DNA from: Engelhardtia mirabilis
GTDB lineage: Bacteria > Planctomycetota > UBA1135 > GCA-002686595
Direction: 5' to 3'
Assembly: GCA_007751255.1 (NCBI GenBank)
Contig: CP036296.1
Span: forward strand, 2,232,001 to 2,296,000
Length of the DNA: 64,000 nt
Below the pieces are notes generated by a model. The model was not told the DNA's origin. It worked only from the letters and a program-made list of their open reading frames with translations, and did no database searches. Below, in pieces: positions 25,803 through 32,399 of this stretch. The translations under genes and the position numbers were made by a program. Numbering within the stretch: position 1 is the stretch's first letter; each line of letters opens with the position of its first letter.

Positions 25803-27089
25803 TCAACCGGCGAATGAGGAGGCTCGACGCCCACCGCCATGGCGAAGCTCGGCGGCGCGCGCGTGGCCCTCGAGGCCTTCGACGCGCGCCAGGCTGGCGG
25901 CGTCGTCGACGAGCACCTGGGCGGCCTTCGGATCGCTGATCCGAAGCTGGGTGCGGGCACGCAGGAACGTCGACACGCTGAGCCCGGCCTGGTGCCGCGC
26001 GCTGCCGCCGGTGGGCAGCACGTGGTTGGGCCCGGCGCCGTAGTCGCCGAGGACCTCGGCGGCGAGCTCGCCGACGAAGAGCGAGCCATACCTACGCAGG
26101 CGTGAGGCCACGGCCTCCGCTTCGCCGACGCAGAGCTGCAGGTGCTCGGGGGCGAGGCGCTCGCACAGGTCGATGGCCTCTTCGAGGTCCGCGGCTGCGA
26201 CGCAGAAGCCGGAACCGATCGCCGCGCACGCGGTCGCCGCGGTGCTGAGGCCATCGAGTTGGCGTTCGAGCTCGTCGTTCACCGCTCCGAGGTCGCAGCC
26301 AGGCAGCGCGATCAGGATCGGCAGGGCGTCCTCATCGTGCTCGGCCTGGGCGATCAGATCCGCGGCCACGCAGGCCGGATCGGCGCCCCCGTCGGCGACG
26401 ACCACCAGCTCCGAGGGACCGGCCAGCATGTCGATCGCGACGCGACTGGAGACGAGCTCCTTGGCGGCGGTCACGAAGCGATTGCCCGGGCCGACGATGG
26501 CCTCACAGGCAGGCAGCGGACCGGCGCCGGAGGCCAGGGCCGCGATGGCCTGGGCACCGCCGGCGGCGAGCAGGCCGTCGGCCCCCGCGATCGCGGCGGC
26601 GGCGAGGGTCGCGGGCGCGGGCTTGGGAGAGGCCACCCAGACCCGCTCCACGCCGGCCACCTTGGCGGTCAGCGCCGTCATCAGCACCGACGACGGCAGT
26701 GGGTGCCGGCCGCCGGGGGCGTAGCAGCCCGCGGACGCCAGCGGCACGAAGCGGTGGCTCGCCACGCAGCCGGGGATCGCCAAGTCCACGTCGGCCAGGG
26801 CTTCCCGCTGGGCGCGGGCGAAGGACTCGATGCGCGCGGCCGTCCGCTCGAGCAGCGCGCGAGTCCGCACGTCGAGTGCATCGCGGGCTCGCTCGAGGTC
26901 GGCCCGTGACCAGAACAGCCGCGCTCCGGGTTCCAGGTCGCCCAACTTCTCGGACCAGGCCCGAAGCGCGGTTTCTCCACCGCCGCGGACCTCGTGCAGA
27001 ATCTCACGCGCCACCTCGCGGGCCGCCGGGTCGACGGGCTCGCGATCGAGGCCGGCCACGTCAGCGGGGGTGATTCGTCGCAGCATCAT
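25803..27089 (-). CDS. hisD: Histidinol dehydrogenase
   Basis: 428 residues. It catalyses the final two NAD-dependent oxidations from L-histidinol to L-histidine. Family signatures present are SAGCYAPGGRHPLPSSVLM, VGPGNRFVTAAKELV, IDMLAGPSELVV, the zinc-ligand region AQAEHDED and LAPEHLQL, and the C-terminal GLSVSTFLR. The start is ATGATG at 27089-27084; the first ATG overlaps the hisA/IE stop by 4 nt. It is the distal gene of the operon, immediately after the HisI-HisE part of the upstream fusion protein, the same relative order as the domains of fungal HIS4. Confidence 0.95.
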   Translation of the reverse strand: MMLRRITPADVAGLDREPVDPAAREVAREILHEVRGGGETALRAWSEKLGDLEPGARLFWSRADLERARDALDVRTRALLERTAARIESFARAQREALADVDLAIPGCVASHRFVPLASAGCYAPGGRHPLPSSVLMTALTAKVAGVERVWVASPKPAPATLAAAAIAGADGLLAAGGAQAIAALASGAGPLPACEAIVGPGNRFVTAAKELVSSRVAIDMLAGPSELVVVADGGADPACVAADLIAQAEHDEDALPILIALPGCDLGAVNDELERQLDGLSTAATACAAIGSGFCVAAADLEEAIDLCERLAPEHLQLCVGEAEAVASRLRRYGSLFVGELAAEVLGDYGAGPNHVLPTGGSARHQAGLSVSTFLRARTQLRISDPKAAQVLVDDAASLARVEGLEGHARAAELRHGGGRRASSFAG

Positions 27090-28363
27090 CGCTCGGCTCC
27101 GGTCCTGTTCGGCTTGGCGTCGCCCGGCCGGCGGCTGACGCGCAGGGCCCGCGCATCGAGGGCACGCTCGACATCGGCCAAGGGAACGCCGGCGGCGCGC
27201 AGCTTGGTCAGGGTGAAGAACAGCACGTCGGCGGCTTCCTGCACGACCTCGTCGCGACCCTCGGCGGCGATCAACTCCTCAACCTCCTCGCGCAGCTTGG
27301 CATCGAGCAGCGCCGGGTCGTCGAACAACCGAGCTGTGTAGGAACCGTCGGGCGCCGATGCCCGTCGTTGCCGAAGCGTCGTTTCGAGTGCCGCCAGGCC
27401 TGTGGCGTCCCCGAAGCAAGTCGCGGTCCCCCGGTGGCAGAAGCCGGCGCCGGTCTGGCGCACGATGAAGCGCAGGGCATCGCGGTCGCAGTCGACCTCG
27501 ACGCGCAGCAATTCTTGGGTGTCGCCGGAGCTCGCGCCCTTGACCCACAACCCGCGCCTGCGCGAGTGGTAGGCGCCGACACCCCCGTCGATCGCCGCGC
27601 GGACCGACTGGAGATCGGAGTAGGCGAGCCCGAGCGCTCGACCCGTCTCGTCGCAGACCACAGTGGGCCACAGGCCGTCGGGCCGATCACTGGAGAGCGG
27701 CGCGGTGAAGCCCTCCGCCAGATCCAACCGTCCGGTGTAGAGCGCCATCCCGACCTGGGCGTCGATCCCCAGGCGGTCGAGCACGGCCACGTCCGCGGGC
27801 GTGGTGACGCCGCCGGCGTAGGTCAGTGAGCGGTCGCCGGCCGCAGCGCGCAGGCTGCGCGCCAAGGTCTCGTCGACGCCGCCGAGCCGGCCCTCGCGTT
27901 CGACCACGGTGACCAGGAACCCGGACACGAAGGGCGCCAGCTCGGCCATGCGTTCGGCCACTCGGGAGCCGGTGCCGACGGTCCAGCCCTCGACCACGAC
28001 CTCGCCGTTGCGGGCGTCGAGGGCGGCGATCACTCGCTCGCGGGGCAGCTGGCCCAGGAACTGGGGTGTCGCGGCGGTGCCGACGACGACTTGCTCGGCC
28101 CCGCGGTCGAGCCAGCGCCGCGCCGCCTCGACCGAACGGATGCCGCCGCCGACCCGGACGGGGCCGAGGTCCACGAGCTCATCGATCAACGCCGTGTTCT
28201 CACCCGCGCCCAGGGCCGCATCCAGGTCGACCACGGCCACGGGACCGACCCGCGCAAAGCGCTGCATCAGCGGCCGCGGATCGCCCGCCTCGAGCTCGAG
28301 GACCGCGCCGCCGATCAACTGCACGGCCTGGCCGCCCTGCAGGTCGATGCTGGGCACGATCAC
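27086..28363 (-). CDS. Three-domain HisA-HisI-HisE fusion enzyme
   Basis: 425 residues from a GTG at 28363 (GGAGGTG upstream) that overlaps the hisF stop by 4 nt. Residues 1-220 are a HisA (ProFAR isomerase) TIM barrel with SIDLQGG (Asp7), GGGIRS, ALDARNG (Asp116), YAGGVTT and MALYTGRLDLAE. The usual TDIxxDGT stretch is replaced by TVVEREGR at about 152-159. Residues 225-318 are HisI (PR-AMP cyclohydrolase) with SRRRGLWVKGASSG, metal motif DCDRD at 291-295, and FCH and TCFG cysteines. Residues 320-415 are HisE (PR-ATP pyrophosphatase) with LLDAKLREEVEEL and EAADVLFF. HisIE fusions are common; fusion to HisA is unusual. It would perform steps 2, 3 and 4 of the pathway. Confidence 0.93.
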   Translation of the reverse strand: MIVPSIDLQGGQAVQLIGGAVLELEAGDPRPLMQRFARVGPVAVVDLDAALGAGENTALIDELVDLGPVRVGGGIRSVEAARRWLDRGAEQVVVGTAATPQFLGQLPRERVIAALDARNGEVVVEGWTVGTGSRVAERMAELAPFVSGFLVTVVEREGRLGGVDETLARSLRAAAGDRSLTYAGGVTTPADVAVLDRLGIDAQVGMALYTGRLDLAEGFTAPLSSDRPDGLWPTVVCDETGRALGLAYSDLQSVRAAIDGGVGAYHSRRRGLWVKGASSGDTQELLRVEVDCDRDALRFIVRQTGAGFCHRGTATCFGDATGLAALETTLRQRRASAPDGSYTARLFDDPALLDAKLREEVEELIAAEGRDEVVQEAADVLFFTLTKLRAAGVPLADVERALDARALRVSRRPGDAKPNRTGAER

Positions 28364-29142
28364 GGCCGCACCTCCACGCCGCCCTCGAGCAGGACGCGCT
28401 TGACGTCGGCGACGGTGAAGTCGCCGTCGTGGAAGAGCGAGGCGGCGAGGAGCGCCTGGGCTCCGGCGCGCGCGGCGGACACGAAGTCCGCGGGGGTGCG
28501 CGCGCCGCCGCTGGCCACCACGGGCACCGAGACCGCCGCGGCGACGCGTTCGACGAGGTCCAGGTCGTAGCCCTCGCGCGTGCCGTCGCGGTCGATGCTC
28601 GTGAGCAGGATCTCGCCTGCGCCCATCGACGCGACCTCGCGCGCCCAGGCGACCGCCTCGAGCTCGACCGCCCGGGTCGCGCTGGCGACGCGTACGCGGT
28701 ACGCGCCTTCGACGCGCTCGGCGTCGATCGCCACCACGATGCACTGGGTACCGAAGCGCTCGGCCAGGCGCCCGACGAGGGCAGGATCCGCGACCGCGGC
28801 GGAGTTGACGGCGACGCGATCGGCCCCGGCGTCGAGCAGGGCGCCGGCGGACTCGAAGTCGCGAACGCCTCCGCCCACGGTCAGGGGGATGCCCAAGCGC
28901 TCGCGCACGCGGCGCACCGTGCGCAGCTCTGCCTGGCGTTCCTCGATGGTGGCGGAGACGTCGAGCATCACGATCTCGTCGGCGCCGGCGGCCTCGTAGC
29001 GCGCGGCCAGCTCGGCCGGGTCGCCGGCGTCGCGGAGCCCTTGGAACTTGACGCCCTTGACCACTCGGCCGCCGCGCGTGTCGAGGCAGGGCACGACGCG
29101 GCGCGCCAGGCCCGAGGTCCGAGCTTCGCCTCCGACGATCAC
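28360..29142 (-). CDS. hisF: Imidazole glycerol phosphate synthase, cyclase subunit
   Basis: 260 residues; TIM-barrel subunit that joins PRFAR and ammonia from HisH into imidazole glycerol phosphate plus AICAR. Motifs seen are VVPCLDTRGGRVVKGVKF (catalytic Asp21), LTVGGGVRDF, VVAIDA with the second catalytic Asp, LLTSIDRDGTREGYD and VVASGGA. The start is a GTG at 29142 with a strong GGAGGTGA Shine-Dalgarno 3 nt upstream; it overlaps the hisH stop by 4 nt. An N-terminal extension of about 10 residues precedes the barrel. Its partner HisH is the immediately preceding gene. Confidence 0.96.
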   Translation of the reverse strand: MIVGGEARTSGLARRVVPCLDTRGGRVVKGVKFQGLRDAGDPAELAARYEAAGADEIVMLDVSATIEERQAELRTVRRVRERLGIPLTVGGGVRDFESAGALLDAGADRVAVNSAAVADPALVGRLAERFGTQCIVVAIDAERVEGAYRVRVASATRAVELEAVAWAREVASMGAGEILLTSIDRDGTREGYDLDLVERVAAAVSVPVVASGGARTPADFVSAARAGAQALLAASLFHDGDFTVADVKRVLLEGGVEVRP

Positions 29143-29813
29143 GAGTCACCTCCGCACAGGGCTGCTGACGCCGTGCGTCGGCGAACGCTCGAGCGCTCGA
29201 GCCAGCGCTCGATCAGCGCGGCGCCGAAGGCTCCCGACAGCTCGGGGTGGAACTGGCAACCGAGCACGGCACCGCGCTCGAGGGCGGCGATGTACGGCCC
29301 CCCGTGGTCGGCCCAGGCGACGCGCCAACCCACGGGTCGCTCGGTCAGGCGATAGCCGTTGGCAAAGGCGGCCCAGCCTGTCTGCAGCAGCTCGCAGTCC
29401 GGGTCCGCCTGGATCCGGTTCCAACCGATCTGCGGCCGCAGGACGCCGTCGGGGAAGCGATTGACCCGCAGGTCCAGCAGGCCGAGCCCGCGATAGCCGC
29501 GCGCTTCCTCGCTGGTCGTGGCCAACAGCTGCAGGCCGAGGCACACCGCCAGGGTCGGCGCGCCGGCGCGGATGCGGTCGGCGAGGGCCTGGTCCAGCTC
29601 GGCCAGGCGCAGTTGCTCCATCCCGGCCGCGAAGCTGCCCACGCCGGGCAGGATCAGCGCGACCGCATCGCGCACCTCTTGCGCCGTCTCCGCCACGCGC
29701 AGTCCGATTCCAAGGCGCGCGAATGCAGCACGCAGGGAGGCCACGTTGGCCACTCCCGTCCGGACCAGGTCTACGACAGGCGGCGAGGCTTCGGGTTCGT
29801 TCGAGTCGTTCAC
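29139..29813 (-). CDS. hisH: Imidazole glycerol phosphate synthase, glutaminase subunit
   Basis: 224 residues; class I glutamine amidotransferase supplying ammonia to HisF. The catalytic triad is visible: nucleophile Cys91 in VCLGLQLL, and His189 with Glu191 in CQFHPELSG. The oxyanion-strand LPGVGSFAAGM near residue 56 and the IGWNRI segment are as in HisH. The N-terminus is about 10 residues longer than usual before VVDLVRTGVANV. Both ends overlap neighbouring genes by 4 nt (GTGA with hisB upstream and with hisF downstream), which should couple production of the two synthase subunits. Confidence 0.95.
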   Translation of the reverse strand: MNDSNEPEASPPVVDLVRTGVANVASLRAAFARLGIGLRVAETAQEVRDAVALILPGVGSFAAGMEQLRLAELDQALADRIRAGAPTLAVCLGLQLLATTSEEARGYRGLGLLDLRVNRFPDGVLRPQIGWNRIQADPDCELLQTGWAAFANGYRLTERPVGWRVAWADHGGPYIAALERGAVLGCQFHPELSGAFGAALIERWLERSSVRRRTASAALCGGDS

Positions 29814-30433
29814 AATGATCCCTTCGCGCTGGGGACGGGGTTGGTCTCGCCGGCGAACTCGCCCGGCAAGGGGTCCGCGGCAACGGCCTGGCGCAGGCAG
29901 CGCGCGGTGGCCTTGAAGGCGGCCTCGACCTTGTGGTGATCGTTGGCGCCGCGCAGCACGTCCACGTGCAGGGTCGCGCGCATCGCCACGGCCAGGGATT
30001 GGAGGAAGTGCGTCGCGTTCTCGGTGGCGAGGGCGCCGATGCGCTCGCGCACCAACTCGAGCTCCACCCGCGCGAAGGGCCGCCCGGAGAGGTCCAGTGC
30101 GACCTGGGCCAGGGCTTCGTCGAGGGGCACCAGGGCCCAGCCGAAGCGCCCGATGCCGCGCCGCTCGCCCAGGGCCGCGTCGATCGCCTGACCCAGGGCC
30201 AGGGCGCAGTCCTCGGCGGTGTGGTGGTCGTCGACCTCGAGGTCGCCGCGACAGGTCAAGCTCACGTCGATGCGCGAGTGCAGGGCCAGGCTCGCGACCA
30301 TGTGGTCGAGGAAGCCGATGCCCGTCGAGACCTCGGCCGCGCCGCTGCCGTCGAGGACCACCCTGCACTCGACGGAGGTCTCGCGGGTGCTGCGCGTCAC
30401 CTGCGCGCTACGAGGGACGGTAGTCGCGCTCAC
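29810..30433 (-). CDS. hisB: Imidazoleglycerol-phosphate dehydratase
   Basis: 207 residues, the monofunctional form without an N-terminal histidinol-phosphatase domain. Manganese-binding motifs characteristic of the enzyme are present: FLDHMV, DDHHTAEDCALALG and the C-terminal NDHHKVEAAFKATARCL. It converts imidazole glycerol phosphate to imidazole acetol phosphate. GTG start at 30433 overlapping the hisC stop by 4 nt. Because the bifunctional form is absent, the histidinol-phosphate phosphatase step must be encoded elsewhere. Confidence 0.96.
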   Translation of the reverse strand: MSATTVPRSAQVTRSTRETSVECRVVLDGSGAAEVSTGIGFLDHMVASLALHSRIDVSLTCRGDLEVDDHHTAEDCALALGQAIDAALGERRGIGRFGWALVPLDEALAQVALDLSGRPFARVELELVRERIGALATENATHFLQSLAVAMRATLHVDVLRGANDHHKVEAAFKATARCLRQAVAADPLPGEFAGETNPVPSAKGSL

Positions 30434-31524
30434 GAGCGCGCCTCCAGGCCCGCGCGGGCTCCGCTCAGCTCGCCCAGGGCGCTGTCCAAGGCCGCGGCCA
30501 GGCGCGCCGACCCCGGATCGTCGACGGGCACCGATATCCGCAGCAGGTCCGCCAGGTCCGCGCGTCCCTCGAAGCGTCGCACGAGCACGCCCCTGGCGCG
30601 CAGGGCCTCGAAGAGCTCGGTCGCGCGAGGCGTCCGCACGCCGACGAAGTTGCCGCCGCTGGGCGGCGCGTCGATGCCGGCGGCGATCAGGCGCGCGCGC
30701 AAGCGCTCGCGCTCGGCCCGGATGCGTCGGATCGCCGATTCGGTCGGAAGCTCGAGGTCGATGGCCGCCCGGGCAAGGATCAGGGCCGGACTGGAGCAGG
30801 GGTAGGGCGGTGCGACGGCCCTGATGGCCGCGATCAGATCCCGCGGGCCCAGGGCGTAGCCCACCCGCAGCCCCGCCAGTCCCAGAGCCTTGGAGAGCGT
30901 GCGCAGCACCACCACGTTGGAGCGGCCCAGTGCCGCGGCCGTCGGGTCATTGGCGCCGAACTCGACGTAGGCCAGGTCCAACAGCAGCGGGTCCGGCGCG
31001 CAGGCGTCGGCGACGGCGAGGACATCGTCGATGCCGGCCTCGCCACCGGTGGGGTTGTTGGGCGTGACCAGGGCGGCCACGGCCCCGGGCTCCGCCGCCG
31101 CCTCGGCAAAGGGATCGCGGGGGAAGGCCCCGGCGCTCCACTCGACGGGGAACAGCGCGGCACCGAGCAGCTCGGCGCAGGCCGGGATCATGGCGAAGGT
31201 CGGCGCGGTGTGGACGAAGCGCCGACCCGGGACCACGAAGGCCGCAGCGAAGGCCGCGATGGTCCCGTCGCCGCCGGTGGTCACGAGGACCTGTTCGGGA
31301 TCCACGCCGTGCAGTTCGGCCAGGCGCGCCTCGAGCTCCGACTTGTCGGGGTAGCGACGCAGGTCTTCGGGGTCGAGTGCGACCAGGGACCTCGAGAGCT
31401 CCGCGGGCGGCGCCGGTCCCTCGTTGCCATCCAGGCGCAGCAGCCCCTCGCCCTGGGGGCGGACGGGTGCGTCGTCCATGCGCGCTCGCGTGGTTCGATT
31501 CGAGTTCATGGCAGTCGAGCTCAC
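30430..31524 (-). CDS. hisC: Histidinol-phosphate aminotransferase
   Basis: 364 residues; PLP-dependent fold type I aminotransferase converting imidazole acetol phosphate to histidinol phosphate. Motifs seen are LRLDGNEGPAPP at the start of the fold, YPDKSELEARLAEL, VTTGGDGTI, TPNNPTGG, DLAYVEF and the PLP-lysine segment TLSKALGLAGLRVGYALG. The GTG start at 31524 overlaps the hisG stop by 4 nt; an internal ATG five codons on is an alternative. The order hisG-hisC-hisB is a common bacterial arrangement. Confidence 0.94.
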   Translation of the reverse strand: MSSTAMNSNRTTRARMDDAPVRPQGEGLLRLDGNEGPAPPAELSRSLVALDPEDLRRYPDKSELEARLAELHGVDPEQVLVTTGGDGTIAAFAAAFVVPGRRFVHTAPTFAMIPACAELLGAALFPVEWSAGAFPRDPFAEAAAEPGAVAALVTPNNPTGGEAGIDDVLAVADACAPDPLLLDLAYVEFGANDPTAAALGRSNVVVLRTLSKALGLAGLRVGYALGPRDLIAAIRAVAPPYPCSSPALILARAAIDLELPTESAIRRIRAERERLRARLIAAGIDAPPSGGNFVGVRTPRATELFEALRARGVLVRRFEGRADLADLLRISVPVDDPGSARLAAALDSALGELSGARAGLEARS

Positions 31525-32399
31525 GCGACGATCTGCGACAGGGCGGAGACGACCACGTCGCTGCCGCCGCGGGCCTTGCGCGCGGGGATCAAGCGCGGCA
31601 ATGCGGAGCGCGGCACCGCCGCCTTGACCGCGTAGCCGCTGCCGCCGAAGAGCTCGGCGATGGTCGGTTGGCGCATGCAGGGCAGGACCTCGACCACGGC
31701 GTCGAGGCGATCGACGGGGACGTTGACCTCGAGCATCACGCGGCCGCGCGCCTCGATCACCGAGCCGATCACCAGGGCCAGGTCGCGCACGCGGGCGGCG
31801 CGGCCCTCGTCGTCGAGCACGGCGCGGCTGGCGTAGAGCCGGGTGCTCGATTCGACCAGGGTGTCGAGCACCACCAGACCGTTGGCGCGCAGAGTTGCGC
31901 CGGTCTGGGTGATGTCGCAGATCAGGTCGGCGTCCTCGGGCGGGAAGACCTCGGTGGCCCCGTTGGAGCGCACGAAGGTCGCGTCGAGACGGCGTCCTTC
32001 GATCCAGTTCGCCGTCAGTCGCTCGAACTCGGACGCGACCACCAGCGGCCGGCGGGGCAGGGCACCGTCCTCCAGCAGCTCCGCCGGGGCCGCGGCCACC
32101 AGGCGCACCGGATCGAGGCCGGTGTCGAGCAGTTCGACCACGTCGGCGTCCAGCTCGGCCACCCAGTCGGCCCCGGCGAAGCCGACGTCGCGCGTGCCGC
32201 TGTGCAGCATCTCGACCACGGTCCGCGGCTTGAGGACCTTGACCTCGAAGCCCGGGCCCACGGTGGGGCGGTAGTTGCGGCTGGAGGCGCGCACGGGCAG
32301 GCTGCCCTCGGCCAGGAGCCTCCAGATGCCCTCCTGCATGCGGCCCTTGGGCAGGGCCAGGCGCAGGTCGTCGTCAGCTCGTCGGGGTGCAGGGTTCAC
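31521..32399 (-). CDS. hisG: ATP phosphoribosyltransferase, long (regulated) form
   Basis: 292 residues; first, committed step of histidine synthesis (ATP + PRPP to PR-ATP). The N-terminus reads LRLALPKGRMQEGIWRLL. The PRPP-binding region is DLICDITQTGATLRANGL, followed by VESSTRLYASR. About 80 further C-terminal residues (VMLEVNVPVDRLDAVVEVLPC and onward) form the ACT-like domain of the long form, which confers allosteric histidine inhibition without HisZ. GTG start at 32399. The gene is preceded by a leader peptide and attenuator hairpin (32475-32607), so expression is likely controlled by histidyl-tRNA charging as well as enzyme feedback. Confidence 0.95.
   Translation of the reverse strand: MNPAPRRADDDLRLALPKGRMQEGIWRLLAEGSLPVRASSRNYRPTVGPGFEVKVLKPRTVVEMLHSGTRDVGFAGADWVAELDADVVELLDTGLDPVRLVAAAPAELLEDGALPRRPLVVASEFERLTANWIEGRRLDATFVRSNGATEVFPPEDADLICDITQTGATLRANGLVVLDTLVESSTRLYASRAVLDDEGRAARVRDLALVIGSVIEARGRVMLEVNVPVDRLDAVVEVLPCMRQPTIAELFGGSGYAVKAAVPRSALPRLIPARKARGGSDVVVSALSQIVA

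What the first reader, a model, noticed from the sequence alone, without database searches (positions are those of the whole stretch)
27086..28363. HisA-HisI-HisE trifunctional fusion with eukaryote-like sequence features, followed directly by hisD
One 425-residue protein joins the HisA TIM barrel to HisI and HisE. From memory of yeast sequences, the HisIE part is strikingly HIS4-like: DRPDGL at the start, ALxFIVxQ then GFCH, SYTxRLF, ALLDAK and a terminal RRxGDAKP. The HisA part has the HIS6-like GGVDE in place of the bacterial TDIxxDGT segment. The next gene, overlapping by 4 nt, is hisD, reproducing the HisI-HisE-HisD order of fungal HIS4, whose N-terminus before the cyclohydrolase is otherwise unexplained and could be a decayed HisA. 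This lineage may preserve the bacterial configuration from which HIS4 arose or was acquired.
Basis: partly seen in the sequence, partly recalled or inferred. Interest (0 to 1): 0.78.

Follow-up and report, generated by a model that had tools for sequence, protein, structure and literature searches.

The report
Bacterial three-in-one histidine enzyme, HIS4-like
This bacterium makes three consecutive enzymes of histidine synthesis as one protein, and part of yeast's HIS4 enzyme appears to belong to the same protein family, which may explain the so far unexplained front end of HIS4.

Summary
In detail: window 28363-27086 (minus) encodes one 425-residue HisA-HisI-HisE protein; hisD overlaps it by 4 nt. 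It is the genome's only HisA, HisI and HisE. The fusion is widespread in bacteria (80 kept loci, chiefly Planctomycetota, Myxococcota, Pseudomonadota by record title) and is mentioned in print (2021, 2024).

The HIS4 link is partly right. Fused lineages bracket HIS4, so its ancestor probably carried HisA in front. Direct similarity of the HIS4 N-terminus to HisA is only suggestive: 2 of 200 unrelated natural controls score as high, 0 of 240 chimeras.

Two claims fail. HIS4's HisD groups with plant and E. coli HisD, not with this operon's, so the shared hisD order is not common descent. The HIS6-like GGVDE occurs in 3 of 83 fusions.

New here: five bacterial genomes with HisA-HisI-HisE-HisD in one frame, and a locus ordered HisHF, HisA-I-E, HIS4-class HisD, the order listed for Acanthamoeba's seven-activity protein.

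The parts
27086..28363 (-). hisA-hisI-hisE fused gene, 425 aa, GTG start
27692..28363 (-). HisA (ProFAR isomerase) domain, residues 1-224; D7, D116 and T152 conserved
   Evidence: Pfam His_biosynth 2-213; D116 and T152 invariant, D7 in at least 90% of 51 fused proteins. That these match the catalytic residues of Thermotoga HisA is recalled.
27404..27691 (-). HisI (PRA-CH) domain, about residues 225-320, starting at SDRPDGL; D291, C292, C309, H310 and C316 invariant
27086..27403 (-). HisE (PRA-PH) domain, about residues 321-425, with the RRPGDAKP tail, and stop codon
25803..27089 (-). hisD, overlaps the fused gene by 4 nt
28360..29142 (-). hisF, overlaps the start of the fused gene by 4 nt
29139..29813 (-). 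hisH (glutamine amidotransferase); GTG start inferred
   Evidence: Pfam GATase 3.5e-11; hisH by operon position
29810..30433 (-). hisB, dehydratase part only
   Evidence: Pfam IGPD 3.8e-60, no phosphatase domain
30430..31524 (-). hisC (class I/II aminotransferase)
   Evidence: Pfam Aminotran_1_2 3.1e-40; hisC by operon position
31521..32399 (-). hisG, with the C-terminal regulatory domain
   Evidence: Pfam HisG 7.2e-32 and HisG_C 1.1e-16

Best explanation
The gene encodes a working trifunctional enzyme for three consecutive steps of histidine synthesis: HisE (step 2), HisI (step 3) and HisA (step 4), in the polypeptide order A-I-E. It sits in a seven-gene operon hisG-C-B-H-F-(A.I.E)-D whose genes overlap by 4 nt. 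It belongs to one bacterial family in which this fusion arose early and spread, probably by transfer of operon blocks. Fungal HIS4 most likely took its HisIE module from this family, so its ancestor carried HisA in front. The unexplained HIS4 N-terminus is then most simply what is left of that HisA after a separate HIS6 took over the step. HIS4's HisD module came from another HisD lineage. Shown: architecture, conserved residues, sole copies in the genome, occurrence across bacteria. Supported by trees and signatures that rest on recalled fungal sequences: the HisIE kinship and the separate source of HisD. Inferred: enzyme activity, any channelling, spread by transfer, direction of transfer, and the fate of HisA in HIS4.
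For: Three Pfam domains over cut-off in one ORF. Catalytic-type residues conserved across 51 fused proteins. The own genome has one match each to PF01502, PF01503 and PF00815, and one HisF plus this HisA (the third PF00977 match is a 56-position fragment). HisF lies within 300 nt upstream in 74 of 80 named loci; HisD lies within 600 nt downstream in 57 and is fused in 2. The HisIE tree splits 62 fused rows plus 2 HIS4 rows from 24 separate rows at 100/99, and holds 54 core fusions plus HIS4 at 99/96. All 13 core signature columns within HisIE are shared by both HIS4 rows when rows are left untrimmed, including the extra residue of GFCH and the RR of the tail (14 of 14 with trimmed rows). S. 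cerevisiae HIS4 HisIE is 52% identical to the window and K. phaffii 44% over a longer stretch; the 20 listed plasmid-collection hits of the K. phaffii query are 28-38% identical. HIS4 N-terminus against HisA profile: 0 of 400 column shuffles, 2 of 200 unrelated natural pairs and 0 of 240 chimeras reach the real score; the alignment is collinear.
Against: AU tests do not reject HIS4 outside the fused family: p 0.094, 0.102 and 0.118; whether HIS4 lies inside the core or is its sister is undecided (0.557 against 0.486). The bootstrap had not settled and S. cerevisiae HIS4 has an unusual residue make-up there. Anchored column shuffles reached the real score in 2 of 400. The HIS4 N-terminus hits neither Pfam His_biosynth nor any HisA among solved structures. 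No enzyme activity was measured.
Confidence: 0.68

Rival explanations
1. An ordinary bacterial fusion; the HIS4 resemblance is shared ancestral sequence or convergence, and the HIS4 N-terminus is an unrelated later addition.
For: AU tests leave room. 2 of 200 unrelated natural pairs reach the N-terminal score, and no sequence library searched links the N-terminus to HisA.
Against: 13 of 13 signature columns within HisIE, among them an insertion and a tail; a 100/99 split. Convergence on all of these is unlikely.
Confidence: 0.2
2. HIS4's HisIE descends from the fused family, but its HisA was lost outright and the present N-terminus is a new domain.
For: The N-terminus is short (144 and 191 residues before the junction in the two recalled sequences), lacks the ALD motif of the fused HisA in both, and is weakly conserved; the 2007 paper found no homologue (named section read).
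Against: Collinear profile match just before the conserved junction, including the LPLIDDL start of recalled S. cerevisiae HIS4 against VPSIDLQ.
Confidence: 0.27
3. The bacterial fusion was acquired from eukaryotes.
For: The HisIE tree is unrooted, so direction is not proven.
Against: Fused proteins are diverse, operon-borne and include deep bacterial branches (8 non-core rows), while the two HIS4 rows are a single twig.
Confidence: 0.04

Closest known systems
HisA/HisIE multifunctional proteins noted in a sequence network (PMC8102479; passages and section 5 read) and HisA/F-HisIE fusions in four archaeal metagenome assemblies (PMC11237513; passages read)
   Same: ProFAR isomerase (HisA or HisA/F), PRA-CH and PRA-PH in one protein; the 2021 paper already places some of them and HIS4 near Myxococcales-related sequences
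   Different: The passages seen do not describe the operon, the signatures, the HIS4 N-terminus or a HisA-I-E-D protein; the 2021 passage names Gammaproteobacteria and Spirochaetia as carriers
Fungal HIS4 (HisI-HisE-HisD with an N-terminal region)
   Same: HisIE subtype, DRPDGL junction, GFCH insertion, RRxGDAKP tail (recalled sequences)
   Different: In HIS4 HisD is fused and of another lineage, and no intact HisA is present
Acanthamoeba 1,682-aa histidine protein (PMC6029752; one section and passages read)
   Same: Listed order synthase/cyclase (HisH/F), HisA, HisI, HisE, HisD matches the operon order H-F-(A.I.E)-D
Bacterial HisIE and separate HisA (E. coli type)
   Same: Same three domains and reactions
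   Different: Separate genes; the 24 separate HisIE rows lack the signature residues, with at most 2 of 24 rows matching at any column

Membership tests
Bacterial HisA-HisI-HisE fusion family | HisA, HisI and HisE in one frame | tested here: met
Bacterial HisA-HisI-HisE fusion family | Groups with other fused proteins in both HisIE and HisA trees | tested here: met
   HisIE 100/99 with HIS4 inside; HisA 88/82
NCBIfam HisA equivalog TIGR00007 | Score over 228.95 bits | tested here: not met
   141.3 bits; the domain is nevertheless over the Pfam cut-off
NCBIfam HisIE equivalog NF002747 | Score over 187 bits | tested here: not met
   119.3 bits
NCBIfam HisE domain TIGR03188 | Score over 42.7 bits | tested here: met
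   64.7 bits
Fungal HIS4 | HisD on the same polypeptide | tested here: not met
   Separate overlapping gene; met in five other bacteria
Fungal HIS4 | HIS4-type HisIE signature columns | tested here: met
   13 of 13 within HisIE untrimmed, against two recalled HIS4 sequences
Fungal HIS4 | HisD of the HIS4 lineage | tested here: not met
   HisD tree, quick method
Fungal HIS4 | N-terminal region homologous to HisA | tested here: inconclusive
Eukaryotic-type HisA (HIS6, TIGR02129) | Score over 229.3 bits; GG[VI]D segment shared by the family | tested here: not met
   44.1 bits; GG[VI]D is in the window but in only 3 of 83 fusions
Enzymatic function of the three domains | Catalysis of steps 2, 3 and 4 | not testable with these tools
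   Only residue conservation seen

The most novel reading that the evidence does not exclude
The N-terminal region of fungal HIS4, of unknown function in the 2007 survey, is a decayed HisA barrel. HIS4 then descends from a bacterial HisA-HisI-HisE protein of this family, joined to a HisD of the plant/E. coli class as in locus L082. Acanthamoeba's seven-activity protein would be the surviving intact version of the same block.
Probability: 0.48. Interest if true: 0.74.

Novelty: new member of a known kind. Interest (0 to 1): 0.52.

Why it matters
HIS4 is a textbook yeast gene, yet the origin of its front end and of its domain order is unexplained in the papers seen. A bacterial family that carries HisA exactly where that front end sits gives a concrete, testable answer, and the five bacterial HisA-HisI-HisE-HisD proteins show that the HIS4 domain order is not confined to eukaryotes, unlike in the 2007 survey. 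The HisD result warns that a matching gene order can mislead: HIS4 appears to be a mosaic.

Tried and rejected
Rejected: HIS6-like GGVDE as a shared feature (3 of 83). Rejected: hisD order as common descent. Led nowhere: two viral-contig scans for HIS4 relatives, a plasmid search for fungal HIS4 (606 records, all under 60% identity; the 20 listed are bacterial), a Pfam scan and a PDB profile search of the HIS4 N-terminus. AU tests were indecisive; a site-by-site look showed large gains and losses at scattered columns, which I read as noise from the constrained searches. Structure prediction was not obtained, so no fold comparison was made. Frame lengths suggested that G530 had a HisA-I-E-D fusion; one search showed two separate frames, so it was dropped. 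A literature search for fusion names found 62 papers with a term; in the 20 listed only 'hisaie' occurs, in papers on viruses, gut cells and the like, and none is on histidine genes by its title.

The signature test used rows trimmed by the profile match, which makes end columns look absent in separate HisIE. Repeated with rows extended by up to 20 residues it gave 17 columns: 13 within HisIE, all shared by both HIS4 rows (D226 dropped out), and 4 in the HisA tail, where the HIS4 rows had been cut and so were not tested.

Rows dropped or chosen before trees: duplicate loci and matches covering under about 150 profile positions were left out, and 146 HisIE rows were cut to 84 by a 68% identity filter before four reference rows were added. 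For one search, 33 operon HisD rows were hand-picked besides the window, and 26 other loci were asked for. For one search the rows were hand-picked; for L122, L164 and L181 were removed from them (two long branches, one duplicate). For one search, 24 of 54 core rows and 6 of 8 non-core fusions were used.

Full report
What is there. On the minus strand at 28363-27086 the window encodes a single 425-residue protein with HisA, HisI and HisE domains, each over its Pfam cut-off. It is part of a compact operon, hisG-C-B-H-F-(A.I.E)-D, with 4-nt overlaps between neighbours (coordinates, domains; the hisH start at 29813 is inferred). NCBIfam equivalog cut-offs for HisA (141.3 of 228.95 bits) and HisIE (119.3 of 187) are not reached, so it is a divergent subtype; the HisE domain model TIGR03188 is reached (64.7 against 42.7). 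The genome has one PRA-CH match, one PRA-PH match, one histidinol dehydrogenase, and one HisF plus this HisA (where a third match covers only 56 model positions). The fused protein is therefore the only source found for steps 2, 3 and 4, in an assembly rated 90.5% complete.

How it works. The three activities are consecutive: HisE removes pyrophosphate from PR-ATP, HisI opens the ring of PR-AMP, HisA isomerises ProFAR (established pathway knowledge). In 51 aligned fused proteins D116 and T152 of HisA, and D291, C292, C309, H310 and C316 of HisI, are invariant, and D7 is nearly so. I recall D8, D127 and T164 as the essential residues of Thermotoga HisA; the match in position is my reading. I infer a working trifunctional enzyme; equal amounts of the three activities and possible channelling are inferred benefits, not shown.

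How common it is. A scan of named genomes confirmed 287 loci encoding a relative and kept the best 80, all of them nearly full-length one-frame fusions. By record title these are 22 Planctomycetota, 19 Myxococcota, 17 Pseudomonadota, 14 unassigned, 2 each Sumerlaeota, Spirochaetota and Armatimonadota, 1 Bacteroidota and 1 labelled archaeon. The scan patterns came from the window protein, so it favours close kin, and titles of metagenome assemblies can be wrong. In even draws, single matches spanning at least 395 residues occur in 16 of 192 genomes of one class and in 20 of 294 of the window's phylum, my counts from the listings. HisF is within 300 nt upstream in 74 of 80 loci; HisD is within 600 nt downstream in 57, fused in 2, not within 600 nt in 17, and off the contig in 4. 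Of the 17, 12 are titled as Alphaproteobacteria or families of that class.

Bacterial proteins with the HIS4 domain order. In five genomes HisA, HisI, HisE and HisD lie in one open frame: L034 (a Polyangia assembly) and L088, and L232, L234 and L235, from three more of the 58 genomes drawn from L088's order. A fourth candidate there, G530, turned out to be two frames. In 57 genomes of L034's order no second case was listed. All five are metagenome or unnamed assemblies, but five separate genomes with different distances between HisE and HisD speak against sequencing error. The 2007 survey reported no prokaryotic HIS4-like protein.

The HIS4 question. My recall of the sister gene HIS6 was exact over 260 residues, and the S. 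cerevisiae length agrees with print (799), while the K. phaffii one is one residue short (843 against 844). With these, S. cerevisiae HIS4 HisIE is 52% identical to the window. In an 88-row tree all 62 fused rows and both HIS4 rows are split from all 24 separate rows, the plant enzyme among them, at 100/99, and HIS4 sits with 54 core fusions at 99/96, inside further fused branches (84/83 and 94/92). The bootstrap had not settled, and S. cerevisiae HIS4 has an unusual residue make-up. Columns that are at least 90% one residue in the core and at most 10% in separate HisIE number 14 with trimmed rows and 13 within HisIE with untrimmed rows; both HIS4 sequences have the core residue in all of them, including an inserted F in GFCH and the RR of the tail. 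Eight of the 13 or fewer separate fused from separate proteins in general; at G245, G307, F308, R411 and R412 none of the 8 non-core fusions has the core residue. Against this, AU tests did not reject HIS4 as sister to all fusions or with the separate enzymes (p 0.094, 0.102, 0.118), and they do not decide between inside and beside the core (0.557, 0.486).

Because fused lineages lie on both sides of HIS4 in that tree, the simplest history has HisA in front of HIS4's HisIE. The 2007 paper describes that N-terminal region as 160-220 residues with no detectable homologue. A two-sequence HIS4 N-terminal profile matches the fused HisA profile with score 24.2, in register (residues 37-100 against 33-113); the single sequences alone give almost nothing (13.7 and 18.8). 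No column shuffle of 400 reached 24.2, but 2 of 200 unrelated protein pairs did; among seven his-family profiles HisA scored highest, and HisF, a known relative of HisA, gave only 15.7. Anchored on the HisIE part, 0 of 240 natural chimeras (best 527.3 against 528.0) and 2 of 400 shuffles reached the real score. Pfam and PDB sequence searches found nothing. I rate this as suggestive, not shown.

HIS4's HisD is closest to plant HisD among solved structures and falls with plant, E. coli and 6an0 HisD in the tree, apart from a clade that holds 32 of the 34 operon HisD rows (quick method, recalled HIS4). So the hisD next door is not the source of HIS4's HisD. The HIS6-like GGVDE is in 3 of 83 fusions. 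HIS6-type HisA, together with one bacterial HisA of the window's phylum (L176), forms a long-branched sister to the fused HisA (98/83), which is weak evidence of kinship and not of descent.

A closer bacterial parallel. Locus L082 encodes HisH-HisF as one 494-residue protein, then HisA-HisI-HisE (424 aa), then a HisD that groups with HIS4, plant and E. coli HisD, an aminotransferase (HisC) and a phosphatase-like plus dehydratase protein (HisN-HisB). Acanthamoeba's 1,682-residue protein is listed as synthase/cyclase, ProFAR isomerase, PRA-CH, PRA-PH, histidinol dehydrogenase, ATP phosphoribosyltransferase (the figure was not seen), the same order for the first five. Robust corals also have a HIS4-like protein (PMC6214176, passages read). 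These fit an ancestral HisA-HisI-HisE-HisD block in eukaryotes, but no protist or coral sequence was examined here.

What is already in print. [quoted passage not shown] A 2024 paper reports HisA/F-HisIE fusions in four archaeal assemblies (passages). In the listings of searches and in the passages I read, nothing links the HIS4 N-terminus to HisA or describes a bacterial HisA-I-E-D protein; I did not read most listed papers, and most subscription journals are outside that library.

Verdict. A real and widespread but little-described fusion, new only as a member; the HIS4 link gives it interest, and a handful of database sequences would decide it.

Noticed in passing
G000 and 40 relatives in its order: Only 4 of 41 genomes have a PRA-CH match and 7 of 41 a histidinol dehydrogenase match, though several genomes exceed 5 Mb; much of this order seems unable to make histidine, with the caveat of incomplete assemblies. 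Three further same-family genomes in another draw do carry the fusion (G377, G406, G479).
   Followed up: partly
L082:4503-10790: HisH-HisF fused in one ORF beside HisA-I-E, with a HIS4-class HisD, HisC and a HisN-HisB fusion: a mosaic his locus.
   Followed up: partly
L176 (G245:C131:2500-4500): A bacterial HisA in the window's phylum that groups with yeast HIS6 and 9fcf at 100/100.
   Followed up: no
L107 and L166 (both from G113): One genome carries two HisA-I-E fusions, 65% and 33% identical to the window's.
   Followed up: no
L087: A HisA-I-E fusion on a contig labelled Halobacteriales archaeon; it groups with bacterial fusions, so misbinning or transfer.
   Followed up: no
G006, G030, G034: Histidinol dehydrogenase-family matches without a PRA-CH match; those of G030 and G034 are partial.
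   Followed up: no
window:23548-24642 (+): An ORF with the YchF-type GTPase domains (PF06071 and PF01926).
   Followed up: no
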